This document shows positions 23,821 through 61,945 of a DNA stretch of 64,000 bases, piece after piece. Origin of the DNA: Hexactinellida sp. DTS-2022 (lineage: Eukaryota; Porifera; Hexactinellida); NCBI GenBank assembly GCA_028753945.1, contig JAPNXP010000003.1, positions 1-64,000 of the forward strand, written 5' to 3'. Within the stretch, counting starts at the first letter, position 1. Each line of letters opens with the position of its first letter. The position numbers and the translations under genes are program-made. Under the pieces are notes generated by a model that saw only the letters and a list, made by a program, of their open reading frames with translations, was not told the DNA's origin and ran no database searches.

Positions 23821-23983
23821 TAAGCCATAATTGGATTAAATAGGTGTTAAAATTATTTGATCATAGATCGTGACCCCAGGTGCACATCTGTAACCCATGA
23901 GACACATATCCTGAAAATTTGGGCTCTTAGTTAATTAAACTCTGTTCAGTAGAGAGGCTACGGACCAATAATAATAATAGAAA

Positions 23984-24098
23984 TCCAAAATTGCAGCTAT
24001 GCCAACGCATGTTCTTTTGGTGGCACTTTATTTTGTTGGTTGTTAATTGATAGTGCCTCCAAAGGAACATGCTGTCGGTACAGGGTGGATTTTTGGAT
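23984..24098 (+). repeat. Palindromic hairpin cassette 3
   Basis: Decayed copy: left GCAGCTATGCCAACGC, right GCTGTCGGTACAGGGTGG. It follows the older docking subtype (ATCTGTAACCCATGAGACAC). Confidence 0.85.
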
Positions 24099-24543
24099 TT
24101 TTTTTCGCCCAGTCATCAACGCCTCAAGGTGTCAAGAACCATTTGTTAATTGGTCCGAGTCACAAGGAACGGTATATAAATTTGAAGTTTGTTTCTATCA
24201 TAAATCATCTTGAGTTTAATGCCATTCATTCTTTACTTATTGATAATAAATTAAATTATTAGTTGTATATTTTAGCAATGTTATCCACGGTGAATGAGTT
24301 AAGTCAACAAATTCCTTACATTATATTATTTTATTTAATCCATTGTATATTAATACTACAATTAAATAGAAGCCAGCTGGAATTCATAAGTTAAATCAAT
24401 ATAATTATCGCAAGTTGAAACAATAGAGTAGGATTTAACAAGTTAAATCAATATGTTTATTACAAGTTGAAACAATGGAATTAAATTTCACAGTTTTAAT
24501 GAAACTGAAGTGTGAGTAAACAAAGAAATTTCAACCCCAATTT

Positions 24544-24650
24544 ATGGCAGAAATTAAACCCTTTTTTGAAGATCTTCTCCCATCAGACTCAGAATTTTAT
24601 GGTGATTCCAAATGTGAAATAAAATTTGGGGGTTTAGTAAAACCCCAGGT
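24544..24650 (+). pseudogene. 44-codon frame, fused by deletion
   Basis: Starts MAEIKPFFEDLLPSDSEFYG but the end of the frame and the following spacer are deleted, so it reads straight into the docking sequence at about 24642. It shows how precisely the docking block can be rejoined to upstream sequence. Confidence 0.6.
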
Positions 24651-24766
24651 GCAAATTAGACGGTCCCATCGCACCTACATGCAAAGTTTAAGCTCATCAA
24701 CTATAAAGCTCTGGCCAGGGCACCGTCTACGGAGAAAAAATAATAAAAATAATAAAAATAATAAAG

Positions 24767-24940
24767 GCAGTGATTCCAATACTGGGCCACTATACTATAG
24801 TATAGTCGGCACAGTAATAATATTGATGGCAGTAAGATTAGAACTGGGCCACTATACTATAGTATAGTCGGCACAGTAATAATAATATACCAAAGCACTA
24901 AGATTAGAACTGGGCCACTATACTATAGTATAGTCGGCAC
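24767..24940 (+). repeat. Small palindromic cassettes, 3 copies
   Basis: One GGCAGTGATTCCAATACT subtype followed by two AAGATTAGAACT subtypes, separated by TAATAATA spacers, directly before hairpin 4. Confidence 0.93.
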
Positions 24941-24961
24941 AGTAATAATATTAATAAAAAA

Positions 24962-25078
24962 ATACAAAATTGCAGCCTGTGCCGACGCATGTCCCTTTGG
25001 TGGCACTATATTTTGTTGGTGGTTTATTGATAGTGCCTCCAAAGGAACATGCTGTCGGCGCAGGCTGCAATTTTGTAT
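24962..25078 (+). repeat. Palindromic hairpin cassette 4
   Basis: Outer pair changed on both arms: ACAAAATTGC left and GCAATTTTGT right instead of CC..GG, so pairing is kept. Shares the variant GCATGTCCC with copy 9 at 30943, showing the two are duplicates. Confidence 0.93.
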
Positions 25079-25810
25079 TTTTTTTGGCCAAGTCATCAAC
25101 GCCCAAGGTGTGAAGAACCATTTGTTAATTGGTCGGAGTTACAAGGAACGGTAGATAAATTTGAAGTTTGTTTCTATCATAAACCATCAAGAGTTTAATG
25201 CCATTCATTCATTATGTATTCATAATAAATTATAGTATTAGTAATATATTTTAGCAATGTTATCCACGGTTGTTTGAGTTGAGTCAACAAATTCCTTATA
25301 TTATTATAATTTATTTAATCCATTGTATAGTAATACTAGAATTAAAAAGAAGCCAGCTGGAATTTATAAGTTGAATCAATTTAATTATCGCAAGTTAAAC
25401 AATAGTGAAAGATTTAACAAGTTAAATCAATATAATTATTAAAAGTTGAAACAATGGAATTAGATTTCACAGTTTTATTGAAATTGAAGTGTTGAGTAAA
25501 CAAAGGAATTTCAACCCCCATTTATGGCAGAAATTAAACCAATTTTAACAAATTCTCTTCTCCCATCAGACGCAAAATTTTAAGATGAATCTAAATATGA
25601 AATAAAATTTTGGGGTTTATTAAAACATATTTTGAGTTATGGACCAGACAAATTTTGAAAGGTGTTAAAGATGTGTCCAAAATTTGTTAATCAAAAATCG
25701 TAACCCCAGGTGCAAATTAGACGGTCCCATCGCACCTACATGACAAGTTTCAGCCCATCAACTATAAAGCTCTGGCCAGGGCACCGTCTACGGAGAAAAA
25801 AAAAAAAAAT

Positions 25811-25924
25811 CCAAAATTGCATCCTGTGCCGACGCATGTTCCTTGGGTGGCACTATATTTTGTTGGTGGTTTATTGATAGTGCCTCCAATGGAACATGCT
25901 GTCGGCACAGGATGCAATTTTGGA
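25811..25924 (+). repeat. Palindromic hairpin cassette 5
   Basis: Left arm GCATCCTGTG and right arm CACAGGATGC: both arms changed, pairing kept. Inverted partner at 57136-57246. Confidence 0.93.
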
Positions 25925-26456
25925 TTTTTTTTTCGCCAAGTCATCATCACTATAAAGGTGTTAAATCATTTCAAAAAGGTGTTACAGAAGGCATCGACCC
26001 TTAGAGTGGTGGAAGTTTCGTTTTAGTTCACTTCCTTTTAGCGATATTCAAGTTTGAGTAGAATATAACAACTGATGACTCAGCATTTTCTATGTGAGTG
26101 TTGGGTCATCACCCAACATGAACTAACCCATTTTTAATATCGAATTAACAAAATTGTAAAAACACATTTTTTTAACGATGTCATCATCACCTCAAGGTGT
26201 CAAGACCCACTTGTATAGGTGGCACGTGCCATAAGGACCAATTGATAAATTGAAAGTTTGTTTCTATCTTCTATGATCTCTGAGATTTATGATATTTAAT
26301 TAATTAGTATATATAATTATTAATATTATTTATAATTTAACACCAATTTCAATGTCAACTTATATTTATTAAGTTTAATTATTTTGTCATAAATAATAAA
26401 TAAATTAATTTGTCCATCAAATTTCAATTCCGCACACTCGATAACCCCTAAAAAAT

Positions 26457-26569
26457 CCAAAATTGCACCCTGTGCCGACGCATGTTCCTTTGGTGGCACT
26501 ATATTTTATTGGTTGGTTATTGATAGTGCCTCCAAAGGAGCATGCTGTCAGACAGGGTGCAATTTTGGA
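26457..26569 (+). repeat. Palindromic hairpin cassette 6
   Basis: Left GCACCCTGTG, right ACAGGGTGC: outer substitution matched on both arms, but the right arm has lost bases in GTCAGACAG. Joins directly to ATAACCCCTA of the preceding long unit, without a docking sequence. Confidence 0.92.
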
Positions 26570-26584
26570 TTTTTTTTCGCCCAG

Positions 26585-27568: not shown

Positions 27569-27718
27569 AAAGGTGTTAAAGATGTGTCCAAAATTTGTTA
27601 ATAAAAAATCGTAACCCCAGGTGCAAATTAGACGGTCCCATCGCACCTACATGCCAAGTTTCAGCCCATCAACAATTAAGCTCTGGCCATTGCACCGTCT
27701 ACGGAGAAAAAAAAAAAA

Positions 27719-27826
27719 AATTGCAGCTGTGCCGACGCATGTTCCTTTGGTGGCACTATATTTTGTTGGTGGGTCATTGATAGTGCCTCCAAAAGAACAT
27801 GCTGTCAGCACATCTGCAATTTTGGA
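27719..27826 (+). repeat. Palindromic hairpin cassette 7
   Basis: Left GCAGCTGTGCCGAC, right GTCAGCACATCTGC: two unpaired changes. The base of the left arm is a pure A run from the docking end. Confidence 0.9.
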
Positions 27827-28271
27827 TTTTTTTTCGCCAAGTCATCAACGCCTCAAGGTGTCATGATCCATTTCTTAATTGATCCGAGCCACAAGGACGG
27901 GAGATAAATTTGAAGTTTGTTTCTATCATAAACCATCTTGAGTTTAATGCCATTCATTCATTATGTATTGATAATAAATTATATTATTAGTTATTTATTT
28001 TAGCAATGTTATCCATGGTTGGTTGAGTTGAGTCAACAAATTCCTTATATTATATTATTTAATTTAATCAATTGTATAGTAATACTAAAATTAAATAGAA
28101 GCCAGCTGGAATTTATAAGTTAAATCAATATAATTATCGCAAGTTGAATCACTAGAGTAGGATTTAACAAGTTAAATCAATATAATTATTACAAGTTGAA
28201 ACAATAGAATTAGATTTAACACTTTACTGAAATTGAAGTGTCAGTAAACAAAGAAATTTCAACCCCCATTT

Positions 28272-28406: not shown

Positions 28407-28572
28407 AAGGTGTTAAAGATGTGTCAAGAATTTGTTAATACAAAATCGTAACCCCAGGTGCAAATTAGACGTCGACTCCGAATCTACATGCCAAGTTTCA
28501 GCCCTCTATGTATACAGGTGTGGCCAGGGCACCTGCTACGGAGAAATAATAATAATAATAAAAATAATAATA

Positions 28573-28702
28573 AAGGCAGTGATTCTAATACTGGGCCACT
28601 ATACTATAGTATAGTCGGCACAGTAAAAAATAATAAAAATAATAATAATAAAGGCAGTGATTCCAATACTGGGCCACTATACTATAGTATAGTCGGCACA
28701 GT
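28573..28702 (+). repeat. Small palindromic cassettes, 2 copies
   Basis: Two GGCAGTGATTC subtypes. No hairpin follows: the sequence continues as AATAAACAAATTGGAAGC, the middle of a long unit, so the array marks a junction. Confidence 0.92.
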
Positions 28703-29341: not shown

Positions 29342-29506
29342 AAGGTGTTAAAGATGTGTCAAAAATTCGTTAATCAAAAATCGTAACCCCAGGTGCAAAT
29401 TAGACGGTCCATACGCACCTACATGCCAAGTTTCAGCCTATCAACTATAAAGCTCAGGCCAGGGCACCGTCTACGGAGAAAAAATAAAAATAATAATAAT
29501 AAAAAT

Positions 29507-29620
29507 CCAAAATTGCAGCCTGTGCCGACGCATGTTCCTTTGGTGGCACTATATTTTGGTGGTGGTTTATTGATAGTGCCTCCATAGGAACATGCTGTCG
29601 GCGCAGGCTGCAATTTTGGA
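29507..29620 (+). repeat. Palindromic hairpin cassette 8
   Basis: Main type with GGCGCAGG on the right arm and an unpaired CCATAGG in the inner arm. Its inverted partner is cassette 22. Confidence 0.92.
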
Positions 29621-30651
29621 TTTTTTTTCCGCCATGTCATCATCACTATGAAGGTGTTAAATTATTTCAGAAAGGTGTTTCAGAAGGCAACGACCCTTAG
29701 AGTCGTGGAAGTTTCCATTTAGTTCATATAATTTTCGAGATATTCAAGTTTGAGTAGAATATAATAGCTGATGACTCAGCATTTTTTATGTGTGTGTTGG
29801 GTCATCACCCAACATCAACTAACCCATTTTAAATATCGAATTAACAAAATTGTAAAAATACATTTTTTTGACGATGTCATAATCACCTCAAGGTGTCAAG
29901 ACCCACTTGTATAGGTGGTACCTGGTCCTGGAATAAGGACCAATTGATAAATTGAAAGTTTTTTCTATCTTGTATCATCTCTGAGATTAATGAAATTAAT
30001 CTAATTAGTATAAATATTTAATTTATTTATTTATTATTTAACACCATTATTATATACAGCAAAATAAATTAAGTTCAATTATTTGCAATTATTATTAATT
30101 TAAATTGAATTTCACTATAATATTTGAATTCCACGCACTCGATAACCCCAATAATCTATTTGGAACCGTCTATAAGTTAAATACAAAATGAATTAATTAT
30201 AATTAATTAAGTCAGTCATTAATTGTGCAAGAATATTCTCGCCGAAATAAATATAATCACTTAATCTGTCGTTGTTGTGGAATGTAAAATCTTAACGGTT
30301 CTATCATAAACCATCTAGAGTTTAATGCCATTCATTCATTATGTATTGATAATAAATTATATTATTAGTTATTTATTTTAGCAATGTTATCCACGGTTAA
30401 GTTGAATTAAGTCAACAAATTCCTTATATTATAATATTTTATTTCATCCATTGTATAGTAATACTAGAATTAAATAGAAGCCAGCTGGAATTTATAAGTT
30501 AAATCAATATAATTATCGCAAGTTGAATCACTAGAGTAGGATTTAACAAGTTAAATCAATATAATTATTACAAGTTTAAACAATGGAATTAGATTTAACA
30601 GTTATACTGAAACTGAAGTGTGAGTAAACAAAGAAATTTCAACCCCCATTT

Positions 30652-30786: not shown

Positions 30787-30942
30787 AAGGTGTTAAAGAT
30801 GTGTCAAAAGTTTCTTAATCAAAAATCGTTACCCCAGGTGCAAATTAGACGGTCCCATCGCACCTACATGCAAAGTTTAAGCCCATCAACTATAAAGCTC
30901 TGGCCAGGGCACCGTCTACGGAGAAAAAATAATAATAAAAAA

Positions 30943-31058
30943 TACAAAATTGCAGCCTGTGCCGACGCATGTCCCTTTGGTGGCACTATATTTTGTTGGT
31001 GGTTTATTGATAGTGCCTCCAAAGGAACATGCTGTCGGCGCAGGCTGCAATTTTGTAT
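30943..31058 (+). repeat. Palindromic hairpin cassette 9
   Basis: Same ACAAAATT/AATTTTGT double-arm change and GCATGTCCC variant as cassette 4. Confidence 0.93.
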
Positions 31059-31503
31059 TTTTTTTAGCCAAGTCATCAACGCCCAAGGTGTGAAGAACCA
31101 TTTGTTAATTGGTCGGAGTTACAAGGAACGGTAGATAAATTTGAAGTTAGTTTCTATCATAAACCATCAAGAGTTTAATGCCATTCATTCATTATGTATT
31201 GATAATAAATTATATTATTAGTTATTTATTTTAGCAATGTTATCCATGGTTGGTTGAGTTGAGTCAACAAATTCCTTATATTATAATATTTTATTTAATC
31301 CATTGTATAGTAATACTAGAATTAAATAGAAGCCAGCTGGAATTTATAAGTTAAATCAATATAATTATCGCAAGTTGAATCACTAGAGTAGGATTTAACA
31401 AGTTAAATCAATATAATTATTACAAGTTTAAACAATGGAATTAGATTTCACAGCTTTACTGAAATTGAAGTGTGAGTAAACAAAGAAATTTCAACCCCCA
31501 TTT

Positions 31504-31638: not shown

Positions 31639-31804
31639 AAGGTGTTAAAGATGTGTCAAAAATTTGTTAATAAAAAATCGTAACCCCAGGTGCAAATTAG
31701 ACGTCGACTTCGAATCTACATGCCAAGTTTCAGCCCTCTATGTATACAGGTGTGGCCAGGGCACCTGCTACGGAGAAATAATAATAATAATATAAATAAT
31801 AATA

Positions 31805-32080
31805 ATAAAGGCAGTGATTCCAATACTGGGCCACTATACTATAGTATAGTCGGCACAGTAAAAATAATAATAATAATAATAAAGGCAGTGATTCTAATAC
31901 TGGGCCACTATACTATAGTATAGTCGGCACAGTAATAATATAAATAAAGGCAGTGATTCCAATACTGGGCCACTATACTATAGTATAGTCGGCACAGTAA
32001 TAATAAAAAAATAATAAAAATAATAAAGGCAGTGATTCCAATACTGGGCCACTATACTATAGTATAGTCGGCACAGTAAT
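31805..32080 (+). repeat. Small palindromic cassettes, 4 copies
   Basis: Four GGCAGTGATTC subtypes with TAATAATAATA spacers of differing length, followed by hairpin 10. Confidence 0.94.
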
Positions 32081-32088
32081 AAAAAAAT

Positions 32089-32202
32089 CCAAAATTGCAG
32101 ACTGTGCCGACGCATGTTCCTTTGGTGGCACTATATTTTGTTGTTTGTTTATTGATAGTGCCTCCAAAGGAACATGCTGTCGGCACAGTCTGCAATTTTG
32201 GA
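32089..32202 (+). repeat. Palindromic hairpin cassette 10
   Basis: Left GCAGACTGTG, right CACAGTCTGC: matched change on both arms, so the whole outer stem is perfect. Confidence 0.94.
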
Positions 32203-32649
32203 TTTTTTTTCGCCCAGTCATCAACGCCTCAAGGTGTCAAAAACCATTTGTTTATTTGTCCGAGTCACAAGGAAAGGTAGATAAATTTGAAGTTTGTTTC
32301 TACCATAAACCATCTTTAGTTTACTGCCATTCATTCATTATATATTGTTAATAAATTATAGTATTAGTTATTTATTTTAGCAATGTTATCCACGGTTAAG
32401 TTGAATTAAGTCAACAAATTCCTTATATTATAATATTTTATTTAATCCATTGTTTAGTAATACTACAATTAAATAGAAGCCAGCTGGAATTTATAAGTTA
32501 AATCAATATAATTATCGCAAGTTGAATCACTAGAGTAGGATTTAAGAAGGTAAATCAATAAAATTATTACAAGTTGAAACAATGGAATTAGATTTCACAG
32601 TTTTACTGAAATTGAAGTGTGAGTAAACAAAGAAATTTCAACCCCATTT

Positions 32650-32784: not shown

Positions 32785-32945
32785 AAGGTGTTAAAGATGT
32801 GTCATAAATTTGTTAATAAAAAATTGTAACCCCAGGTGCAAATTAGACGCTCCCATCGCACCTACATGCCAAGTTTCAGCTCTCTATGTATAAAGGTGTG
32901 GCCAGGGCACCGTCTACGGAGAAAAAATAAAAATAATAATAATAA

Positions 32946-33203
32946 AGGCAGTGATTCCAATACTGGGCCACTATACTATAGTATAGTCGGCACAGTAAAA
33001 ATAATAAAGGCAGTGATTCCAATACTGGGCCACTATACTATAGTATAGTCGACACAGTAATAATATACCAAGGCAGTAAGATTAGAACTGGGCCACTATA
33101 CTATAGTATAGTCGGCACAGTAATAATATTAATAATAATAATATACCAATGCAATAAGATTAGAACTGGGCCACTATACTATAGTATAGTCGGCACAGTA
33201 ATA
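32946..33203 (+). repeat. Small palindromic cassettes, 4 copies, right edge of domain 2
   Basis: Two GGCAGTGATTC and two AAGATTAGAACT subtypes; the second has GTCGACACAG. The mosaic domain ends exactly after the last GTCGGCACAGTAATAA. Confidence 0.93.
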
Positions 33204-40116: not shown

Positions 40117-40122
40117 TAAAAA

Positions 40123-46012: not shown

Positions 46013-47112
46013 TTTTTTTTCGCAATGTCATCATCACTATGAAGGTGTTAAATTATTTCAGAAAAGTGTTTCAAAGGCAACGACCCTTAGTGAGTTGGAA
46101 GTTTCGTTTTAGCTCACTTCATTTGAGAGATATTCAAGTTTCAGTAGAATATAATATGTGCTGAGTCAGCATTTTTTAGGTGCCGTTTGGGTATTCACCC
46201 AACTCCTACCAACCCATGCGAATTATTTAATTCACAAAATTGTAAAAATACAATTTTTTGACGATGTCATCATCACCTCAAAGTGTCAAGACCCACTTGT
46301 ATAGGTGGTACCTGGCATAAGGACCAATTGATAAATTGAAATTTTGTTTCTATCTTATATCATTTCTGAGATTAATGAAATTTAGATAATTAATATAAAT
46401 ATTTATATATTCTATTAATAATTTAACACCAATATTATGTACATCAAAATATATTAAGTTCAATTATTTGCAATAATTATTAATTGAAATTGAAATTCAC
46501 TTTCATATTTGAATTCAGCGCACTCGATAACCCCAATAATCTATTTGGAACCATCTCTATAAGTTAGTCACAGAACGAATTAATTTGAATTAAATATATA
46601 ATGTATCCATTGTGCAAGAATATTCAAAGCAGAAGTAAATATAATCACATAATCAGTCGTTGTTATGAAATATATAATCTTAGTTTTCAATTGGAAAATA
46701 GTAGCCTACTCGATCTCACAAGTTGAATCAATATAATAATCACAAGTTGAAACAATAGAATTAGATTTAACACTTTCAATTGAACTGAAGTGTTAGTAAA
46801 CAAAGGAATTTGCAAGTCAATTGTGGAACAAACGAAGCCCAATTTAAAAATTCGTGCACTGTGAAAAGGTGTAGAATTAAATTCTCTATCTAATGCATAT
46901 AAATTAAATATTCGCGCACTATTTATTGTTCTTTTTCTAATATTAAACAGGTGCAAAATTGTGGCCAAAAAATTGTAATCTAAAATCGTGACCCCAGGTG
47001 CACATCTGTAACCCACGAGACACATATCCTGAAATTTTGGGTTCTTAGTTAATTAAACTCTGTTCAGTGGATGAGCTACGGAAGGATAATAATAATAATA
47101 ATAATAAAAAAT

Positions 47113-47224
47113 CCAAAGTTGCAGCTGTGCCGACGCATGTTCCTTTGGTGGCACTATATTTTGGAGGTGTTTTATTGATAGTGCCTCCAAAGGAACATCT
47201 GTCGGCACAGGCTGCAATTTTGGA
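47113..47224 (+). repeat. Palindromic hairpin cassette 17
   Basis: Left CCAAAGTTGCAGCTGTG, right CACAGGCTGCAATTTTGG, and AACATCTGTC lacks a base: uncompensated decay. Confidence 0.88.
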
Positions 47225-47672
47225 TTTTTTTCGACAAGTCATCAACTCCCAAGGTGTGAAGAACCATTTGTAAATTGATTGTTGTCAAAGGAACGGTAGA
47301 TAAATTTTAAGTTTGTTTCTATCATAAACCATCTTGAGTTTAATGCCATTCATTCATTATGTATTGATAATAAATTATATTATTAGGTATTTATTTTAGC
47401 AATGTTATCTACGGTGATTTGAGTTTAGTCAACAAATTCCTTATATTATTATATTTTATTTAATCCATTGTATAGTAATACTACAATTAAATAGAAGCCA
47501 GCTGGAATTTATAATTTGAATCAATTTAATTATCGCAAGTTGAAACAGTAGTGAAATATTTAACAAGTAAAATCAATATAATTATTACAAGTTGAAACAA
47601 TGGAATTAGAATTCACAGTTTTATTGAAATTGAAGTGTTGAGTAAACAAAGGAATTTCAACTCCCATTTATG

Positions 47673-47770: not shown

Positions 47771-47965
47771 ACATATTTTAAGTTATGGACCAGACAAATT
47801 TTGAAAGGTGTTAAAGATGTGTCCAAAATTTGTTAATCAAAAATCGTAACCCCAGGTGCAAATTAGACGTCGACTCCGAACCTACATGCCAAGTTTCAGC
47901 CCATCAACTAGCAACTATAAAGCACTGGCCAGGGCACCGTCTACGGAGAAAAAATAATAATAAAA

Positions 47966-48072
47966 ATTGCAGATGTGCCGACGCATGTTCCTCTGGTGGC
48001 ACTATATTTTGTTGGTGGGTTACTGATAGTGCCTCCAAAAGAACATGCTGTCAGCACATCTGCAATTTTGGA
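47966..48072 (+). repeat. Palindromic hairpin cassette 18
   Basis: Left GCAGATGTGCCGAC, right GTCAGCACATCTGC: GATG/CATC matched on both arms. Confidence 0.92.
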
Positions 48073-48801
48073 TTTTTTTTCGCCAAGTCATCAACGCCTC
48101 AAGGTGTCATGATCCATTTGTTAATTGATCCGAGCCACAAGGAACGGTAGATAAATTTGAAGTTTGTTTCTATCATAAACCATCTTGAGTTTAATTCATT
48201 CATTCATTATGTATTGATAATAAATTATATTATTTTATAATTTTTTTAGCAATGTTATCCACGGTTGGTTGAGTTGAGTCAACAAATTCCTTATATTATA
48301 TTATTATATATATATAATCCATTGTATAGTAATACTACAATTAAATAGAAGCCAGCTGGAATTTATAAGTTAAATCAATATATTTATCGCAAGTTGAAAC
48401 AATAGAATAAGATTTAACAAGTCAAATCAATATAATTATTACAAGTTGAAACAATAGAATTAGATTTAACACTTTCAATGGAACTGAAGTGTTAGTAAAG
48501 AAATGAAACTTGCAACTCTATTGTGGCACTAACGAAACCCAATTTAAAAATTCGTGCACTGTGAAAAGGTGTAGAATTTAATTCTCTATCCGTACATGTA
48601 AATTTTATCAAGCTCAATATTAATTATTTCATGTTATGAGCTATAATTAGCTTAAATAGGTGTTGAAATCATTTGATAAAAAATCGTAACCCCAGGTGCA
48701 AATTAGACGGTCACTCCGCAACTACATGCCAAATTTCAGCCCTCAATGTATACAGGTGTGGCCAGAGCACCTGCTACGGAGAAATAATAATAAAAGAAAA
48801 T

Positions 48802-48914
48802 CCAAAATTGCACCCTGTGCCGACGCATGTTCCTTTGGTGGCACTATATTTTGTTGGTTGTTTATTGATAGTGCCTCCAAAGGAACATGCTGTCGGCGCA
48901 GGCTGCAATTTTGG
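48802..48914 (+). repeat. Palindromic hairpin cassette 19
   Basis: Left GCACCCTGTG, right GCAGGCTGC: changed on one arm only. Identical to cassette 20. Confidence 0.92.
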
Positions 48915-49355
48915 ATTTTTTTACGCCAAGTCATCAACGCCCAAGGTGTGAAGAAGCATTTGTTAATTGGTCTGAGTCACAAGGAACGGTAGATAAATTT
49001 GAAGTTTGTTTCTATCTTAAACCATCTTGAGTTTGATGCCATTCATTCATTATGTATTGATAATAAATTATATTATTAGTTATTTATCTTAGCATTGTTA
49101 TCCACGGTTGAGTTGAATTAAGTCAACAAATTCCTTATATTATATTATTTTATTTAATCCATTGTATGGTAAATTAAATAGAAGCCAGCTGCAATTTATA
49201 AGTTAAGTCAATTTAATTATCGCAAGTTGAATCAATAGAGTAAGATTTAACAAGTTAAATCAATATAATTATTACAAGTTGAAACAATGGAATTAGATTT
49301 AACAGTTATACTGAAACTGAAGTGTGAGTAAACAAAGAAATTTCAACCCCCATTT

Positions 49356-49490: not shown

Positions 49491-49656
49491 AAGGTGTCAA
49501 AGATGTGTCAAAAATTTCTTAATCAAAAATCGTTACCCCAGGTGCAAATTAGACGGTCCCATCGCACCTACATGCAAAGTTTAAGCCCATCAACTATAAA
49601 GCTCTGGCCAGGGCACCGTCTACGGAAAAAAAATAATAAAAAAAATAAGAAAAAAT

Positions 49657-49770
49657 CCAAAATTGCACCCTGTGCCGACGCATGTTCCTTTGGTGGCACT
49701 ATATTTTGTTGGTTGTTTATTGATAGTGCCTCCAAAGGAACATGCTGTCGGCGCAGGCTGCAATTTTGGA
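49657..49770 (+). repeat. Palindromic hairpin cassette 20
   Basis: Tandem duplicate of cassette 19 with the same one-arm change. Confidence 0.92.
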
Positions 49771-50210
49771 TTTTTTTACGCCAAGTCATCAACGCCCAAG
49801 GTGTGAAGAAGCATTTGTTAATTGGTCTGAGTCACAAGGAACGGTAGATAAATTTGAAGTTTGTTTCTATCTTAAACCATCTTGAGTTTGATGCCATTCA
49901 TTCATTATGTATTGATAATAAATTATATTATTAGTTATTTATATTAGCATTGTTATCCACGGTGAGTTGAATTAAGTCAACAAATTCCTTATATTATATT
50001 ATATTATTTAATCCATTGTATGGTAAATTAAATAGAAGCCAGCTGCAATTTATAAGTTAAATCAATTTAATTATCGCAAGTTGAATCAATAGAGTAAGAT
50101 TTAACAAGTTAAATAAATATAATTATTACAAGTTGAAACAATGGAATTAGAATTCACAGTTTTATTGAAATTGAAGTGTTGAGTAAACAAAGAAATTTCA
50201 ACCCCCATTT

Positions 50211-50345: not shown

Positions 50346-50501
50346 AAGGTGTTAAAGATGTGTCAAAAATTTGTTAATCAAAAATCGTAACCCCAGGTGC
50401 AAATTAGACGGTCCCATCGCACCTACATGCCAAGTTTCAGCCCATCAACTATGAAGCTCAGGCCAGGGCACCGTCTACGGAGAAAAAAAAAAAAAAAAAA
50501 A

Positions 50502-50610
50502 AATTGCAGCCTGTGCCGACGCATGTTCCTTTGGTGGCACTATATTTTGTTGGTGGTTTATAGATAGTGCCTCCAAAGGAACATGCTGTCGGCGCAGGCT
50601 GCAATTTTGG
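50502..50610 (+). repeat. Palindromic hairpin cassette 21
   Basis: Preceded by a run of about 22 A residues that merges with the docking end, so the CC of the outer pair is lost on the left arm only. Confidence 0.9.
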
Positions 50611-51267
50611 ATTTTTTTCGCCAAGTCATCAACGCCCAAGGTGTGAAGAACCATTTGTTAATTGGTCGGAGTCACAAGGAACGGTAGATAAATTTGAATT
50701 TAGTTTCTATCTTAAACCATCTTGAGTTTAATGCCATTCATTCATTATGTATTGATAATAAATTATATTATTAGTTAATTTTTTTAGCAATGTTATCCAC
50801 GGTTGAGTTGAATTAAGTCAACAAATTCCTTATATTATATTATTATATTTAATCCATTGTATAGTAATACTATAATTAAATAGAAGCCAGCTGGAATTTA
50901 TAAGTTAAATCAATTTAATTATCGCGAGTTGAATCAATAGAGTAAGATTTAACAGTTTTACTGAATCTGAAGTGTGAGGAAACACAGGAGATTGGCACCC
51001 CAATTATGGCGCAAACCTAGGCTAAGTTGAACATTTGCGAATTGCCAAAAGGTGTAGAATTTAATTCTCTATCCGTATATGTAAAATTCATCAAGCTAAC
51101 TATTAATTATTTAATGCTATGAGCCATAATTAGTTTAAATAGGTGTTAATTATTTGATCAAAAATCGTAACCCCAGGTGCGAATTTGACGTTCACTCCGC
51201 AACTGCATGCCAAATTTCAGCCCTTAATGTATACAGGTGTGGCCAGGGCACCTGCTACGGAGAAATA

Positions 51268-52523
51268 ATAAAGGCAGTGATTCCAATACTGGGCCACTAT
51301 ACTATAGTATAGTCGGCACAGTAATAATAAAGGCAGTGATTCTAATACTGGGCCACTATACTATAGTATAGTCGGCACAGTAATAATAATAAAGGCAGTG
51401 ATTCCAATACTGGGCCACTATACTATAGTATAGACGGCACAGTAAAAATAAAGGCAGTGATTCCAATACTGGTCCACTATACTATAGTATAGTCGGCACA
51501 GTAATAACCAAGGCAGTAAGATTAGAACTGGGCCACTATACTATAGTATAGTCGGCACAGTAATAATAACCAAGGCAGTAAGATTAGAACTGGGCCACTA
51601 TACTATAGTATAGTCGGCACAGTAATAATAACCAAGGCACTAAGATTAGAACTGGGCCACTATACTGTAGTATAGTCGGCACAGTAATAAAGCCAGTGAT
51701 TCTAATACTGGGCCACTATACTATAGTATAGTCGGCACAGTAAAATAATATTAAAGGCAGTAAGATTAGAACTGGGCCACTATACTATAGTATAGTCGGC
51801 ACAGTAAAAAAAATAATAATATTAAAGGCAGTAAGATTAGAACTGGGCCACTATACTATAGTATAGTCGGCACAGTAAAAATAATAATAAAGGCAGTGAT
51901 TCCAATACTGGGCCACTATGCTATAGTATAGTCGGCACAGTTAAAATAATAATAAAGGCAGTGATTCCAATACTGGGCCACTATACTATAGTATAGTCGG
52001 CACAGTAATAAAGGCAGTGAGATTAGAACTGGGCCACTATACTATAGTATAGTCGGCACAGTAATAATAACTTACCAAAGCACTAAGACCAATACTGGGC
52101 CACTATACTATAGTATAGTCGGCACAGTAAAAAAAATAATAATATTAAAGGCAGTAAGATTAGAACTGGGCCACTATACTATAGTATAGTCGGCACAGTA
52201 AAAATAATAATAAAGGCAGTGATTCCAATACTGGGACACTATGCTATAGTATAGTCGGCACAGTTAAAATAATAATAAAGGCAGTGATTCCAATACTGGG
52301 CCACTATACTATAGTATAGTCGGCACAGTAATAAAGGCAGTGAGATTAGAACTGGGCCACTATACTATAGTATAGTCGGCACAGTAATAATAACTTACCA
52401 AAGCACTAAGACCAATACTGGGCCACTATACTATAGTATAGTCGGCACAGTAATAATAACTTACCAAAGCACTAAGACCAATGCTGGGCCACTATACTAT
52501 AGTATTGTCGGCACAGTAATAAG
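51268..52523 (+). repeat. Array of 20 small palindromic cassettes
   Basis: Twenty cassettes of the three subtypes (GGCAGTGATTCCAATACT, GGCAGTAAGATTAGAACT, CAAAGCACTAAGACCAATAC) at 56-70-bp spacing with TAA-type spacers. A block of five recurs with a 323-bp period: the rare variant CACTATGCTATAG and the GCACAGTTAAAAT variant appear at 51913-51945 and again at 52236-52268. It follows docking sequence GGGCACCTGCTACGGAG directly, with no hairpin, and forms the right edge of domain 3. Confidence 0.95.
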
Positions 52524-53883: not shown

Positions 53884-54147
53884 TTGTGTGCCCTCACATC
53901 TCCTATGAGAGTTCTCAACAGATCTGAACCAAATTTTGTAGGTCACTTAGGGTGTATCCAACTACCCAGAATAAGGAGTTTTTAAGAGATATCTACATTT
54001 CTCGAGGAGTTAACTCGAAATTATGATTTTGCCACCTTTTCATACAATTCTATGGGAATTATCAAAGATTATAGTGCTGCTAGAAAAACAATTCAAATTC
54101 TTAATCTATGGTTTTGGTATATGAGAAATCCGAATATGATATTTTTA
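53884..54147 (+). mobile_element. Possible Helitron-like left-end body
   Basis: After TAIL-TG run, CTATGAGAGTTCTCAACAG then ATCTGAACCAAATTTTGTAG has the layout of Helitron heads elsewhere in the window (microsatellite, then a short conserved word, then AAATTTGG-like word), but the words themselves differ. Cut at 54147 by the inverted mosaic domain. Confidence 0.35.
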
Positions 54148-54387
54148 CTGTGCCTACTATACAATAGTATAGTGGCCCAGTTCTAATCTCACTGCCTTTA
54201 TTACTGTGCCGACTATACTATAGTATAGTGGACCAGTATTGGAATCACTGCCTTTATTATTACTGTGCCGACTATACTATAGTATAGTGGCCCAGTATTG
54301 GAATCACTGCCTTTATTTATATTATTACTGTGCCGACTATACTATAGTATAGTGGCCCAGTATTAGAATCACTGCCTTTATTTATAT
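54148..54387 (-). repeat. Small palindromic cassettes, 4 copies
   Basis: First copy has TACTGTGCCTACTATACAAT, a two-base variant; the others are typical. Inner edge of domain 4. Confidence 0.93.
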
Positions 54388-54535
54388 TATTATTATTTCT
54401 CCGTAGCAGGTGCCCTGGCCACACCTGTATACATAGAGGGCTGAAACTTGGCATGTAGATTCGGAGTCGACGTCTAATTTGCACCTGGGGTTACGATTTT
54501 GTATTAACAAATTTTTGACACATCTTTAACACCTT

Positions 54536-54670: not shown

Positions 54671-55692
54671 AAATGGGGGTTGAAATTTCTTTGTTTACTG
54701 ACACTTCAATTTCAGTAAAGTGTTAAATCTAATTCTATTGTTTCAACTTGTAATAATTATATTGATTTAACTTGTTAAATCCTACTCTAGTGATTCAACT
54801 TGCGATAATTATATTGATTTAACTTATAAATTCCAGCTGGCTTCTATTTAATTTTAGTATTACTATACAATTGATTAAATAAAATAATATAATATAAGGA
54901 ATTTGTTGACTCAACTCAACCAACCATGGATAACATTGCTAAAATAAATAACTAATAATATAATTTATTATCAATACATAATGAATGAATGGCATTAAAC
55001 TAAAGATGGTTTATGATAGAACCGTTAAGATTTTACATTCCACAACAACGACAGATTAAGTGATTATATTTATTTCGGCGAGAATATTCTTGCACAATTA
55101 ATGACTGACTTAATTAATTATAATTAATTCATTTTGTATTTAACTTATAGACGGTTCCAAATAGATTATTGGGGTTATCGAGTGCGTGGAATTCAAATAT
55201 TATAGTGAAATTCAATTTAAATTAATAATAATTGCAAATAATTGAACTTAATTTATTTTGCTGTATATAATAATGGTGTTAAATAATAAATAAATAAATT
55301 AAATATTTATACTAACTAGATAAATTTCATTAATCTCAGAGATGATACAAGAAAGAAACAAACTTTCAATTTATCAATTGGTCCTTATGCCACGTAACAC
55401 CTCTACAAATGGGTTTTGACACCTTGAGGTGATGATGACATCGTCAAAAAAATGTGTTTTTACAATTTTGCTAATTCGATATTTAAAATGGGTTAGTTGA
55501 TGTTGGGTGATGACCCAACACACACATAAAAAATGCTGAGTCATCAGCTATTATATTCTACTCAAACTTGAATATCTCTAAAATTATATGAACTAAATGG
55601 AAACTTCCACCACTCTAAGGGTCGATGCCTTCTGTAACACCTTTTTGAAATAATTTAACACCTTCATAGTGATGATGACATGGCGAAAAAAA

Positions 55693-55807
55693 TCCAAAAT
55701 TGCAGCCTGCGCCGACAGAATGTTCTTTTGGAGGCACTATAAATAAACAACCAACAAAATGTAGTGCCACCAAAGGAACATGCGTCGGCACAGGCTGCAA
55801 TTTTGGA
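55693..55807 (-). repeat. Palindromic hairpin cassette 22
   Basis: Inverted partner of cassette 8 with an inner-arm change (CAGAATGTTC). Confidence 0.9.
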
Positions 55808-55970
55808 TTTTATTATTTTTATTTTTATTTTTTCTACGTAGACGGTGCCCTGGCCTGAGCTTTATAGTTGATAGGCTGAAACTTGGCATGTAGGTGCGTA
55901 TGGACCGTCTAATTTGCACCTGGGGTTACGATTTTTGATTAACGAATTTTTGACACATCTTTAACACCTT

Positions 55971-56105: not shown

Positions 56106-57135
56106 AAATGGGGTTTGAAATTTCTTTGTTTACTCGCACTTCGATTTCAGTAAAAGTGTTAAATCTAATTCTATTGTTTCAACTTGTAATAATTATATTG
56201 ATTTAACTTGTTAAATCTTACTCTATTGTTTCAACTTGAGATAAATATATTGATTCAACTTATAAATTCCAGCTGGCTTCTATTTAATTGTAGTATTACT
56301 ATACAATGGATTAAATAAAATATAATGATATAAGGAATTTGTTGACTAAACTCAAATCACCGTGGATAACATTGCTAAAATAAATAACTAATAATTTAAT
56401 TTATTATCAATAAGTAATGAATGAATGGCATTAAACTAAAGATGGTTTATGATAGAACCGTTAAGATTTTACATACCACAACAACGACAGATTATGTGAT
56501 TATATTTACTTCTGCGTTAATATTATTGCACTGTTAATATACTGACGTAATTAATTATAATTAATTCAGTCAGTATATGACTTATATAGATGCTTCCAAT
56601 TTGTTTATTAGGGGTTATCGAGTGTGCGGAATTGAAATTTGATGGACAAATTAATTTATTTATTATTTATGACAAAATAATTAAACTTAATATATATAAG
56701 TTGACATTGAAATTGGTGTTAAATTATAAATAATATTAATAATTATATATACTAATTAATTAAATATCATAAATCTCAGAGATCATAGAAGATAGAAACA
56801 AACTTTCAATTTATCAATTGGTCCTTATGGCACGTGCCACCTATACAAGTGGGTCTTGACACCTTGAGGTGATGATGACATCGTTAAAAAAATGTGTTTT
56901 TACAATTTTGTTAATTCGATATTAAAAATGGGTTAGTTCATGTTGGGTGATGACCCAACACTCACATAGAAAATGCTGAGTCATCAGTTGTTATATTCTA
57001 CTCAAACTTGAATATCGCTAAAAGGAAGTGAACTAAAACGAAACTTCCACCACTCTAAGGGTCGATGCCTTCTGTAACACCTTTTTGAAATGATTTAACA
57101 CCTTTATAGTGATGATGACTTGGCGAAAAAAAAAT

Positions 57136-57246
57136 CCAAAATTGCATCCTGTGCCGACAGCATGTTCCATTGGAGGCACTATCAATAAACCACCAACAAA
57201 ATATAGTGCCACCCAAGGAACATGCGTCGGCACAGGATCCAATTTT
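57136..57246 (-). repeat. Palindromic hairpin cassette 23
   Basis: Partner of cassette 5 (GCATCC type). The outer end reads GGATCCAATTTTTT and runs straight into a small cassette at 57252. Confidence 0.9.
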
Positions 57247-57251
57247 TTTTT

Positions 57252-57372
57252 ACTGTGCCGACTATACTATAGTATAGTGGCCCAGTTCTAATCTTACTGC
57301 CTTGGTTATTATTACTGTGCCGACTATACTATAGTATAGTGGCCCAGTATTGGAATCACTGCCTTTATTATT
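57252..57372 (-). repeat. Small palindromic cassettes, 2 copies
   Basis: AAGATTAGAACT and GGCAGTGATTC subtypes between hairpin 23 and a docking end. Confidence 0.93.
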
Positions 57373-58157
57373 TATATTTATATTTTTCTCCGTAGACTGT
57401 GCCCTGGCCAGAGCTTTATAGTTGATGGGCTGAAACTTGGCATGTAGGTGCGTATGGACCGTCTAATTTGCACCTGGGGTTACGATTTTTGACTACCACG
57501 TTTTGGACACATTTTTAACACCTTTCAAAATTTGTCTGGTCCATTACTCAAAAAATGTTTTACTAAACCACCAAATTATATTTCACTTTTGGATTCATCA
57601 TAAAATTCTACGTCTGATGGGAGAAGAAACTTTTCAATAAAGGGGTCAATTTCTGCCATAAATGGGGGTTGAAATTTCTTTGTTTACTCACACTTCAATT
57701 TCAGTAAAGTGTTAAATCTAATTCTATTGTTTCAACTTGTAATAATTATATTGATTTAACTTGTTAAATCCTACTCTAGTGATTCAACTTGCGATAATTA
57801 TATTGATTTAACTTGTTAAATCTTACTCTATTGATTCAACTCGCGATAATTATATTGATTTAACTTATAAATTCCACCTGGCTTCTATTTAATTGTAGTA
57901 TTACTATACAATGGATTAAATTAAATTAATTTATATAATGAATTTGTTGACTAAACTCAAATCACCGTGGATAACATTGCTAAAATAAATAACCAATAAT
58001 ATAATTTATTATCAATACATAATGAATGAATGGCATTAAACTCTAGATAGTTTATGATAGAAACAAACTTAAAATTCAACAATCGTTTCTTGTGACTCCG
58101 ACCACTTAACAAATGGTTCTTCACACCTTGGGCGTTGATGACTTGGTGAAAAAAAAT

Positions 58158-58268
58158 CCAAAATTGCAGCCTGCGCCGACAGCATGTTCCTTTGGAGGCA
58201 CTATCAATAAACCACCAACAAAATATAGTGCCACCAAAGGAACATGCGTCGGCACAGGCTGCAAATTT
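58158..58268 (-). repeat. Palindromic hairpin cassette 24
   Basis: The outer end GCTGCAAATTTTACTGTGCC passes directly into a small cassette, so the hairpin base and cassette are joined with a few bases lost. Confidence 0.9.
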
Positions 58269-58400
58269 TACTGTGCCGACTATACTATAGTATAGTGGCC
58301 CAGTTCTAATCTTACTGCCTTTATTTTATTTTTATTATTTTTACTGTGCCGACTATACTATAGTATAGTGGCCCAGTTCTAATCTTACTGCCTTTATTTT
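58267..58400 (-). repeat. Small palindromic cassettes, 2 copies
   Basis: Two AAGATTAGAACT subtypes separated by TTTATTTTTATTATTTTT, abutting hairpin 24. Confidence 0.93.
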
Positions 58401-59140
58401 TATTTTTATTATTTTTATTTCTCCGTAGCAGGTGCCCTGGCCACACCTATATACATAGAGGGCTGAAACTTGGCATGAAGGTTCGGAGTCGACGTCTAAT
58501 TTGCAGCTGGGGTTACGATTTTTGATTAACAAATTTTGGACACATCTTTAACACCTTTCAAAATTTGTCTGGTCCATAACTCAAAATATGGTTTAATAAA
58601 CCCCAAAATTTTATTTCATATTTAGATTCATCTTAAAATTCTGCGTCTGATGGGGGAAGTCAATTTGTTAAAATTGGTTTAATTTCTGCCATAAATGGGG
58701 GCTGAAATTTCTTTGTTTACTCAACACTTCAATTTCAATAAAACTGTTAAATCTAATTCTATTGTTTCAACTTGTAATGATTATATTGATTTAACTTGTT
58801 AAATCTTACTCTATTGTTTCAACTTACGATAAATATATTGATTCAACTTATAAATTCCAGCTGGCTTCTATTTAATTGTAGTATTACTATACAATGGATT
58901 AAATTTAATAATATAATATAAGGAATTTGTTGACTTAATTCAACTCAACCGTGGATAACATTGCTAAAATAAATTACTAATAATATAATTTATCATCAAT
59001 ACATAATGGATTAATGGCATTAAACTCTAGATGGTTTATGATAGAAACAAACTTCAAATTCAACAATCGTTCCTTATGACTCCAACCAAATAACAAATGG
59101 TTCTTGACACCTTGGGCGTTGATGACTTGGCGAAAAAAAT

Positions 59141-59254
59141 CCAAAATTGCAGCTTGTGCCGACAGCATCTTCCTTTGGAGGCACTATCAATAAACAACCA
59201 ACAAAATATAGTGCCACCAAAGGAACATGCGTCGGCACAGGCTGCAATTTTGGA
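59141..59254 (-). repeat. Palindromic hairpin cassette 25
   Basis: Inner arm ACAGCATCTTCC carries an unpaired change; the outer arm has GCAGCTTGTG against CACAGGCTGC. Confidence 0.88.
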
Positions 59255-59402
59255 ATTTTTTATTTCTCCGTAGCAGGTGCCCTGGCCACACCATTATACA
59301 TTGAGGGCTGAAACTTGGCATGTAGATGCGGAGTGCCCTTCTAATTTGCACCTGGGGTTACGATTTTTGATTAACCAATTTTGGACACATTTTTGACACC
59401 TT

Positions 59403-59537: not shown

Positions 59538-59988
59538 AAATGGGGGTTGAAATTTCTTTGTATACTCAACACTTCAATTTCAATAAAACTGTGTAATCTA
59601 ATTCCATTGTTTCAACTTGTAATAATTATATTGATTTATCTTGTTAAATCTTTCACTATTGTTTCAACTTGCGATAATTAAATTGATTCAACTTATAAAT
59701 TCCAGCTGGCTTCTATTTAATTATAGTATTACTATGCAATGGATTAAATAAAATACAATAATAGTATAAGAAATTTGTTGACTAAACTCAAATCACCGTG
59801 GATAACATTGCTAAAATAACTAACTAATAATATAATTTATTATCAATACATAATGAATGAATGGCATTAAACTCTAGATGGTTTATGATAGAAACAAACT
59901 TCAAATTTATCTACCGTTCCTTGTGACTCGGACCAAATAACAAATGCTTCTTCACACCTTGGGCGTTGATGACTTGGCTTAAAAAAAT

Positions 59989-60102
59989 CCAAAATTGCAG
60001 CCTGCGCCGACAGCATGTTCCTTTGGCGGCACTATCAATAAACAACCAACAAAATATAGTGCCACCAAAGGAACATGCGTCGGCGCAGGCTGCAATTTTG
60101 GA
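59989..60102 (-). repeat. Palindromic hairpin cassette 26
   Basis: Both outer arms read GCAGCCTGCGCC / GGCGCAGGCTGC, so the CGCC variant is present on both arms (elsewhere usually on one). Confidence 0.92.
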
Positions 60103-60260
60103 TTTTTTTTATTATTATTATTTCTCCGTAGCAGGTGCCCTGGCCACACCTGTATACATAGAGGGCTGAAACTTGGCATGTAGATTCGGAGTCGACGTCT
60201 AATTTGCACCTGGGGTTACGATTTTTGATTAAGAAATTTTTGACACATCTTTAACACCTT

Positions 60261-60395
60261 TCAAATTTTGTCTGGTCCATAACTCAAAAGTTGTTTTACT
60301 AAACCCCCGAATTTTATTTCACATTTGGATTCGCCATAAAATTCTGCGTCTGATGGGTGAAGAAAATTTTCAATAATGGGTTTAATTTCTGCCAT
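60261..60395 (-). CDS. 44-codon repeat frame
   Basis: MAEIKPIIENFLHPSDAEFY, VKQLLSYGPDKI. Confidence 0.28.
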   Translation of the reverse strand: MAEIKPIIENFLHPSDAEFYGESKCEIKFGGLVKQLLSYGPDKI

Positions 60396-60842
60396 AAATG
60401 GGGCTTGAAATTTCTTTGTTTACTCACACTTCAATTTCAGTAAAACTGTGAAATCTAATTCCATTGTTTCAACTTGTACTAATTATATTGATTTAACTTG
60501 TTAAATCTTTCACTATTCTTTCAACTTGCGATAATTAAATTGATTCAACTTATAAATTCCAGCTGGCTTCTATTTAATTTTAGTATTACTATACAATGGA
60601 TTAAATATAATATAATAATAAAAGGAATTTGTTGACTTAATTCAACTCAACCGTGGATAACATTGCTAAAATAAATTACTAATAATATAATTTATTATCA
60701 ATACATAATGGATTAATGGCATTAAACTCTAGATGGTTTATGATAGAAACAAACTTCAAATTTATCTACCGTTCCTTGTGACTCGGACCAATTAACAAAT
60801 GCTTCTTCACACCTTAGGCGTTGATGAATTGGCGAAAAAAAA

Positions 60843-60953
60843 TCCAAAATTGCAGCCTGCGCCGACAGCATATTCCTTTGGAGGCACTATCAATAAACAA
60901 CCAACAAAATATAGTGCCACCAAAGGAACAAACGTCGGCACAGGCTGCAATTT
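60843..60953 (-). repeat. Palindromic hairpin cassette 27
   Basis: Inner arms ACAGCATATTCC and GGAACAAACGTC are unpaired; the outer end runs into a small cassette at 60957. Confidence 0.9.
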
Positions 60954-60956
60954 CTT

Positions 60957-61076
60957 TTACTGTGCCGACTATACTATAGTATAGTGGCCCAGTTCTAATC
61001 TTACTGCCTTTAATATTATTACTGTGCCGACTATACTATAGTATAGTGGCCCAGTATTGGAATCACTGCCTTTATT
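60957..61076 (-). repeat. Small palindromic cassettes, 2 copies
   Basis: One of each main subtype. Confidence 0.93.
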
Positions 61077-61796
61077 GTATATTATTAGTTTTTCTCCGTA
61101 GACGGTGCCCTGGGCACATCTTTATACATTGAGGGCCGAAACTTGGCATGCAGGTGCGGAGTGACCGTCTAATTTGCACCTGGGGTTACGATTTTTGATC
61201 AGATACTTTTGTCACCTATTTAAGCTAATTATGGCTCATACCATAAAAAAATGAATAGTGAACTTGATAAAATTTACATATTGGGATATATAATTAATTC
61301 TACACCTTGTCACAGTGCAGGAATTTTCAAATTGGGCTTCGTTTGTGCCACAATTGACTTGAAAATTCTCTTTGTTTACTCGCACTTAAGTTTCAGTAAA
61401 CTGTGAAATCTACTTCCATTGTTTCAACTTGTAATAATTTTATTGATTTAACTTGTAAATCTTACTCTATTGTTTCAACTTGCGATAATTATATTGGTTT
61501 AACTTATAAATTCCAGCTGGCTTCTATTTAATTATAGTATTACTATACATTGGATTAAATTAAATAATTTAATATTAGGAACTTGTTGACCCAACTCAAC
61601 CAACCGTGGATAACATAGCTAAAAATAAATAACTAATAATATAATTTATTATCAATACATAATGAATGAATGGCATTAAACTCAAGATGGTTTATGATAG
61701 AAACCAACTTCAAATTTATCTACCGTTCCTTGTCTCTCCGACCAATTAACAAATGGTTCTTCACACCTTTGGCGTTGATGACTTGGCGAAAAAAAT

Positions 61797-61910
61797 CCAA
61801 AAATGCAGCCTGCGCCGACAGCATGTTCCTTTGGAGGCACTATCAATAAACCAACAAAAAAATATAGTGCCACCAAAGGAACATGCGTCGGCACAGGCTG
61901 CAATTTTGGA
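61797..61910 (-). repeat. Palindromic hairpin cassette 28
   Basis: CCAAAAATGCAGCC has an unpaired outer base. Last cassette before the domain ends near 61935. Confidence 0.9.
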
Positions 61911-61945
61911 TTTTTTATTATTAATATTACTTTCTTTTAGAGGAG

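What the first reader, a model, noticed from the sequence alone, without database searches (positions are those of the whole stretch)
23821..61935. Two unrelated-looking palindromic cassettes share one docking site and one sequence word
In the mosaic family the sequence after CTACGGAG is variable: none, 2-20 small cassettes, a 113-bp hairpin, or cassettes followed by a hairpin. Both cassettes contain CTGTGCCGAC, and in both the palindrome is imperfect in the same way: one extra unpaired base beside that word (hairpin GAC-GCATG versus GACAGCATG; small cassette GGCC-ACTATAC versus GCCGACTATAC). Shared word, shared bulge and shared docking position suggest a common ancestor or a common mechanism that adds and expands palindromes at one place. 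I know of no described element with this two-cassette plug-in layout, but I cannot search.
Basis: partly seen in the sequence, partly recalled or inferred. Interest (0 to 1): 0.87.

Follow-up and report, generated by a model that had tools for sequence, protein, structure and literature searches.

The report
Helentron ends mistaken for docked cassettes
The two palindromes are the left and right ends of one family of rolling-circle jumping genes (Helentrons), and the long rows of small palindromes look like old left ends stranded when newer copies landed inside older ones.

Summary
The pattern is real: CTACGGAG occurs 22 times (0.37 expected), CTGTGCCGAC 73 times (0.00 expected), and the genome holds 5,289 exact small-cassette cores. 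But nothing docks. On the other strand it is a Helentron or its non-autonomous HINE form: 5'-[C: small palindrome, (ATT)n]-[T: CTCCGTAG...]-body-[S]-[H: 113-bp hairpin]-3'. Copies coding a 1,700-aa Rep-helicase-endonuclease share these ends. H is the 3' end, fused to a body start in 105 of 106 readable copies. C is the 5' end: in sampled loci T almost never meets host DNA. The shared word is the inverted repeat typical of Helentrons. Six empty sites at two loci show insertion into a T6 run without duplication beyond T. Cassette rows are best explained by self-insertion: newcomers land in the (ATT)n between an older element's C and T. The T-proximal cassette type follows body family (p=6e-9), the distal type does not; bracket-like pairing holds in 33 of 40 cases (20 by shuffle). 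Self-insertion giving several 5' ends was already proposed for Fusarium Helitrons; rows of up to 20 are the new degree.

The parts
14402..14514 (-). C row, 2 units (5' terminal modules); strand given in Helentron sense throughout
24763..24943 (-). C row, 3 units
28572..28702 (-). C row, 2 units; next to a body that lacks its H
31807..32077 (-). C row, 4 units
32944..33199 (-). C row, 4 units; outer 5' end of the array 21955-33199
44511..44693 (-). C row, 3 units
51270..52517 (-). C row, 20 units; outer 5' end of the array 40120-52517; contains a 323-bp higher-order repeat
54147..54379 (+). C row, 4 units; outer 5' end of the array 54147-61913
57252..57366 (+). C row, 2 units
58270..58394 (+). 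C row, 2 units
60959..61073 (+). C row, 2 units
13206..13320 (-). H, 3' terminal hairpin
21955..22071 (-). H
23981..24099 (-). H
24960..25079 (-). H
25807..25926 (-). H
26453..26571 (-). H
27717..27828 (-). H
29503..29622 (-). H
30940..31059 (-). H
32085..32204 (-). H; folded as example, -57 kcal/mol
40120..40239 (-). H; outer 3' end of array
40965..41085 (-). H
42395..42506 (-). H
43234..43351 (-). H
44696..44815 (-). H
45897..46014 (-). H
47109..47226 (-). H
47963..48074 (-). H
48798..48917 (-). H
49653..49772 (-). H
50500..50613 (-). H
55691..55810 (+). H
57133..57246 (+). H
58155..58268 (+). H
59138..59257 (+). H
59986..60105 (+). H
60841..60953 (+). H
61794..61913 (+). H; outer 3' end of array
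13085..13171 (-). T2 module
14295..14392 (-). T2
23867..23964 (-). T2
24659..24735 (-). T1 ('docking site')
25720..25796 (-). T1
27631..27707 (-). T1
28463..28544 (-). T3
29403..29479 (-). T1
30848..30924 (-). T1
31695..31776 (-). T3
32841..32922 (-). T3
40880..40956 (-). T1
42305..42386 (-). T3
43145..43221 (-). T1
44413..44489 (-). T1
45785..45886 (-). T2
46985..47084 (-). T2
47877..47949 (-). T1
48701..48782 (-). T3
49552..49626 (-). T1
50407..50483 (-). T1
51182..51263 (-). T3
54398..54479 (+). T3
55833..55909 (+). T1
57387..57463 (+). T1
58420..58501 (+). T3
59265..59346 (+). T3
60123..60204 (+). T3
61093..61174 (+). T3

Best explanation
The cassettes and hairpin are the two termini of a Helentron (Helitron2-type rolling-circle transposon with an endonuclease) and its coding-free HINE derivatives, read on the opposite strand. 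Element in its own sense: 5'-ACTGTGCCGAC (5' subTIR) - short inverted repeat closing a hairpin - spacer - (ATT)n microsatellite [= C] - CTCCGTAG... [= T, the 'docking site'] - body - S - 113-bp terminal hairpin containing GTCGGCACAG (3' subTIR) - GGATTT-3' [= H]. It inserts within T-runs without a target duplication beyond T. SHOWN: shared ends with autonomous copies, boundaries, empty sites. INFERRED: movement by the Rep-Hel-EN protein. INFERRED, with statistical support: because each element offers its own T-rich (ATT)n tract between C and T, later elements insert there in the same orientation. This strands the old C upstream (rows of C) and the old T directly behind the newcomer's hairpin (C-less T). 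The result is head-to-tail arrays whose C rows read like nested brackets. Composite copies with several C units may then move as one, making the count grow (not shown here).
For: Stretches A and B hold an open frame of 1,707 and 1,700 codons between a T module and S-H. The frame of A matches Helitron_like_N, PIF1 and UvrD_C_2 helicase domains and a C-terminal Exo_endo_phos endonuclease. Of 10 more autonomous copies, of which only the expected end regions were read, 5 show C then T at the 5' side (L100 with 14 C), 3 H then T, 2 nothing; at the 3' side 4 show S-H, 1 S alone, 5 nothing. By hand, L106 has T1 3,377 bp before its Rep match, the same distance as B; L107 is 99.6% identical to B over S1-H. 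H follows S in 105 of 106 readable copies. 5' side of T: C 62, H 60, neither 2, of 124 assessed. Outer C ends have two or more T before them in 38 of 39. Empty sites: 2 read for L036 and 4 for L037, all six with A6 at the site. Proximal C subtype against body family 38:9 and 0:16, p=5.6e-9; distal 18:18 and 6:6, p=1.0. Bracket pairing 33 of 40, shuffle mean 20.0, p=2e-4; shuffled within each locus 25.8, p=8e-4. Neighbouring elements are no more alike than other pairs (median 88.8% and 88.5%), against concatemers.
Against: There are 159 C units not next to a T but only 68 C-less T, so nesting within the stretches read does not give all rows; a 323-bp higher-order repeat in the 20-unit row shows local duplication too. 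7 of 40 bracket pairs mismatch; 28 C-less T had no C left in the stretch and were dropped. The bracket idea came from looking at the window, A and B; the arrays fetched afterwards, L121-L124, match 12 of 13 but have no T2 among the 13, so they test it weakly, and L120 gave no testable pair. Loci were chosen by C or H words, so an end lacking both would be missed; in 5 of the 13 hairpin-chosen loci no T of the same element lay in the stretch. One C sits alone inside an element (A:13758), and 3 of 41 clusters lie beside unrelated DNA. The subTIR match is 10 bp (literature 11-15) and H is far longer than described 3' palindromes. No activity was tested.
Confidence: 0.87

Rival explanations
1. Rolling-circle read-through: arrays are concatemers made when the 3' hairpin fails to stop replication, and C rows are slippage products.
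For: [quoted passage not shown] a passage of the Helraiser paper cites head-to-tail junctions and tandem arrays.
Against: Adjacent elements should be near-identical; 1 of 56 adjacent pairs is (>=97% over >=95% length), against 34 of 2,222 other pairs (which include the repeated blocks of L122), and 5 of 65 elements have their best match next door. Proximal and distal C subtypes behave differently.
Confidence: 0.08
2. C rows grow mainly by unequal exchange or slippage of an existing C unit, independent of insertion.
For: 323-bp higher-order repeat in the 20-unit row; 159 C units not next to T against 68 C-less T.
Against: Would not strand T modules behind H (60 of 124) nor make distal C types independent of body family while pairing with downstream T.
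Confidence: 0.25
3. C is a separate miniature element of about 60 bp that inserts by itself into T-rich tracts.
For: Solo C in the T-run at A:13758 inside an element, with no T or H attached; C also beside other sequences (L003, L062, L074, L079).
Against: The host boundary is C in whole elements that end in H (L036, L037, L039); proximal C type is tied to body family.
Confidence: 0.12
4. A SINE-like retroposon with an (AAT)n tail inserted by target-primed reverse transcription.
For: AAT-rich stretch after CTACGGAG, A-run targets, some truncated copies.
Against: Both ends shared with Rep-helicase elements; of the 30 best RT loci fetched, only L025 showed the hairpin word, in an adjacent element; empty sites at two loci without duplication beyond the A-run.
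Confidence: 0.02

Closest known systems
HINE / DINE-1 (non-autonomous Helentrons; Thomas 2014, PMC4067079: passages, one section)
   Same: subTIRs at both ends, palindrome at 3' end, microsatellite or tandem repeats, T-rich insertion without target modification, endonuclease-bearing Rep/helicase partner
   Different: 3' hairpin about 113 bp instead of 5-10 bp and holding the 3' subTIR; 5' module repeated up to 20 times
Multiple 5' termini in Fusarium Helitron2 elements (PMC5148889: passages; its tables not seen)
   [quoted passage not shown] 7); hairpins at both ends in FoHeli1 and FoHeli2; asymmetric terminal inverted repeats
   Different: The examples in the passages seen are repeated once or in small combinations, and no fungal endonuclease domain was found there; here rows reach 20 and nesting is tested statistically
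Cg_HINE of Pacific oyster (PMC7492417: abstract and outline, one section)
   Same: 5' subTIR + complementary IR + microsatellite, 3' subTIR + palindrome
   Different: Their repeated unit is central satellite-like DNA, not the 5' end

Membership tests
Helentron/HINE | Partner ORF with Rep and helicase domains | tested here: met
   PF14214, PF05970, PF13538 in the L053 frame; at least 151 PF14214 matches in the genome
Helentron/HINE | Endonuclease domain C-terminal to the helicase | tested here: met
   PF14529 at 1330-1432 and PF03372 at 1247-1429 of 1707 aa, one copy tested
Helentron/HINE | Non-autonomous copies share both ends with the partner | tested here: met
Helentron/HINE | subTIRs at both ends | tested here: met
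   CTGTGCCGAC one base from the 5' end, GTCGGCACAG 17 bases from the 3' end; 10 bp, shorter than the 11-bp rule for naming a family in PMC4067079
Helentron/HINE | 5' inverted repeat next to the subTIR, then microsatellite | tested here: met
   GTGGCCCAGT closes a 35-nt hairpin (-8 kcal/mol, z -4.1), then (ATT)n
Helentron/HINE | Palindrome near the 3' end | tested here: met
   H, -57 kcal/mol, z -19.3; longer than described
Helentron/HINE | Insertion in T-rich DNA, no target duplication | tested here: met
   two loci with six empty sites read; duplication within the T-run cannot be excluded
Helentron/HINE | Rolling-circle movement | not testable with these tools
   needs an assay
Canonical Helitron (Helitron1) | 5' TC, 3' CTRR, insertion between A and T | tested here: not met
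   ends are ACTG...GGATTT in T-runs
SINE / non-LTR retroposon | Target duplications and RT partner with same 3' end | tested here: not met
   no duplication beyond the A-run at two loci; no shared end in the 30 loci fetched of the 150 scored RT matches

The most novel reading that the evidence does not exclude
A self-insertion ratchet: each Helentron carries in its own 5' end the T-rich target for the next, so arrays record their insertion order as nested brackets, and composites with many 5' start signals move on as units. In its boldest form the 60-bp 5' module alone can be mobilised, its own hairpin serving as the stop signal, which would make it among the smallest rolling-circle elements.
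Probability: 0.3. Interest if true: 0.6.

Novelty: new variant of a known kind. Interest (0 to 1): 0.4.

Why it matters
It removes an apparent new 'plug-in' element and replaces it with a known class, so the repeats can be annotated correctly. It also gives an unusually rich natural data set for the self-insertion model of multiple Helitron ends proposed from fungal copies: insertion order can be read from the cassette row and checked against the bodies downstream. Whether several 5' ends help an element to start transposition becomes a testable question.

Tried and rejected
A SINE or target-primed model was held first because of the AAT tails and truncated copies; it fell when both ends were found on Rep-helicase elements. 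A replitron or IS200/605-like single-strand element was considered from recall for the bulged hairpins; one paper search was made and no replitron protein was sought, because the Helentron protein turned up first. Rfam, searched on window 23800-62000 only, gave 21 weak microRNA-precursor matches, all below gathering score, as hairpins do. Concatemers were tested and disfavoured. Reading the brackets in queue order instead of stack order gave no significant link (p=0.15). The base-for-base identity of the two bulges was rejected. The organism was not identified.

Rows dropped: the loci L064-L066 and L087-L090 (they overlap the longer arrays L121, L123 and L124) and L122 beyond base 5700 (near-copies of the first block) were left out; 28 C-less T without a C in the stretch were left out of the 40; C units of unreadable subtype ('?') were left out of the tables, 9 of 133 T matches (6 without a matched 5' edge, 3 at an edge) were not assessed. 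The first counts mixed strands in the window, because the palindromes match both ways, and are not used for the window (cleaned from then on). Scripts (time limit; missing file) gave no result and were redone.
Full report
What is there. Mapping with local alignments gives, in the window, 28 hairpins (H), 29 modules ending in CTACGGA or a close variant (T, three types) and 11 rows of small cassettes (C) with 2 to 20 units.

Genome-wide. Counts are 5,289 exact cassette cores, 4,718 hairpin words with up to two mismatches and 1,715 exact copies of one T variant, with reversed-pattern controls at 0. The 100 cassette places that one search lists at the start of C1 form, grouped by eye, 41 clusters, all read: 35 of 41 abut T by automatic match; three more abut a related CTCCGT/ATCCGT-type end by eye (L003 and L062 belong to another body family, L073 is interrupted); three (L061, L074, L079) abut unrelated DNA.

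The hairpin is not docked. In the cleaned sample 105 of 106 hairpins with readable flank are fused to a body start S. On their outer side, of 107, 57 meet T, 26 C, 1 S, 2 lie at an edge and 21 have no mapped module within 80 bases. Most of these 21 are host DNA, but at least three are not: L122 was cut there before a C, and L078 and window 26453 continue into body sequence. So H is one end of the element, and 'H after CTACGGAG' is the junction of two neighbours.

The cassette is the other end. Isolated copies L036, L037 and L039 run from host T-run to C, then T, body, H and host T-run. Of 124 T modules assessed, 62 have C beside them, 60 have H and 2 have neither: in this sample host DNA is met by C and hardly ever by T. 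In 5 of the 13 hairpin-chosen loci no T of the same element lay in the stretch, so they do not speak to this. Of 39 outer C ends 38 have two or more T before them.

Empty sites. Joining the flanks of L036 found two places 99% identical across the joint and one at 86%; the flanks of L037 found 16 places matched across the joint, from 97% down to 87%. The two and four whose site I read carry A6. L037 has A6 and A3 on the two sides of its insert against A6 in the empty site, so three A (T in Helentron sense) come with the element, with neither loss nor duplication beyond the run. L036 has A8 and A5, seven more than its empty site, in line with the variable terminal T number reported for HINEs (PMC4067079, passages and the target-site section).

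The partner. Helitron_like_N matches at least 151 places. Two regions with long frames were read in full. In B an open frame of 1,700 codons lies between T and S-H; in A one of 1,707, although A has a further T fragment before its H and may include a later insertion. The A protein has Rep, PIF1/UvrD-type helicase and a C-terminal endonuclease, the domain order of Helentrons. For ten more autonomous copies I read only the expected end regions: at the 5' side 5 of 10 show C then T, 3 H then T, 2 nothing; at the 3' side 4 of 10 show S-H, 1 S alone and 5 nothing. Missing ends may lie outside the stretches.

Shared word. In Helentron sense the 5' end starts A-CTGTGCCGAC and the 3' hairpin ends GTCGGCACAG-GCTGCAATTTTGGATTT. 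These fit the subterminal inverted repeats that, with a 5' inverted repeat, a microsatellite and a 3' palindrome, mark HINEs (PMC4067079 and PMC7492417). The bulges are real but at different bases.

Why rows of cassettes. C units fall into subtypes by the spacer after the palindrome. The unit next to T follows the body family: T1/T3 with type a against others 38 to 9, T2 0 to 16 (p=5.6e-9; 37:8 and 0:15). The outermost unit does not (18:18 and 6:6, p=1.0). If a newcomer inserts in the (ATT)n between C and T of an older element, the old C is left upstream and the old T behind the newcomer's H; the k-th C counted outward should then match the k-th T downstream. It does in 33 of 40 testable cases, against 20.0 when the types of C units not next to T are shuffled over all loci (p=2e-4) and 25.8 when shuffled within each locus (p=8e-4). 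The idea was formed on the window, A and B, so the test is not independent; the arrays fetched afterwards, L121-L124, match 12 of 13 but none of the 13 is T2, and L120 gave no testable pair. B illustrates it: its C row is type a then c, followed by T2-body-H and then the autonomous T1 element, as if a c-T2 element had landed inside the 5' end of an a-T1 autonomous copy. Neighbouring elements are no more similar than other pairs (median 88.8% of 56 and 88.5% of 2,222), which speaks against concatemers. Nesting does not explain all: 159 C units not next to T face 68 C-less T, a 323-bp repeat inside the 20-unit row shows local duplication, and one solo C sits in a T-run at A:13758.

Relation to print. 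Multiple 5' termini with one 3' end, and self-insertion as their cause, were proposed for Fusarium Helitron2 elements (PMC5148889, passages). Searches on Helentron arrays, nested insertion and multiple termini showed me no paper with 5' rows of this size, but I saw only the best-listed titles, abstract starts and the named passages, and the library holds open-licence papers only. A passage of the Helraiser paper (PMC5876387) cites circles, head-to-tail junctions and tandem arrays for canonical Helitrons.

Verdict. The identity of both palindromes as Helentron ends is close to certain; nested self-insertion as the main source of cassette rows is likely, not proven; the kind is known and the degree is new.

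Noticed in passing
window 1-12704: Tandem array of a 564-bp unit at the very start of contig C12, itself built of 41-42-bp repeats; probably subtelomeric satellite.
   Followed up: no
window 36708-37289: 193-aa ORF matching Helitron_like_N (E 2e-38) between two HINE arrays.
   Followed up: partly
G000 genome: Among PF14214 matches, long open frames cluster at about 220 bits and at about 104 bits, suggesting two Helitron lineages; the lower one holds the Helentrons described. L055 of the other group has C units upstream of its ORF, in the opposite sense.
   Followed up: partly
A:13758-13810 (within C11:1345300-1360600): A single C unit alone in a T-run inside an element, without T or H.
   Followed up: partly
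L003, L062: A different body family (CTCCGTGTCGCCTCC...) carries the same C at its end: ends shared between families.
   Followed up: no
L122 (C1:5016000-5025900): A block of several elements of about 3.9 kb is repeated in tandem with near-identical spacing, so larger segmental duplication also occurs.
   Followed up: no
window 17419-18744 and 16072-16472, 22457-23412: GAACGAAC-type repeat field and two 141-bp tandem repeat arrays.
   Followed up: no
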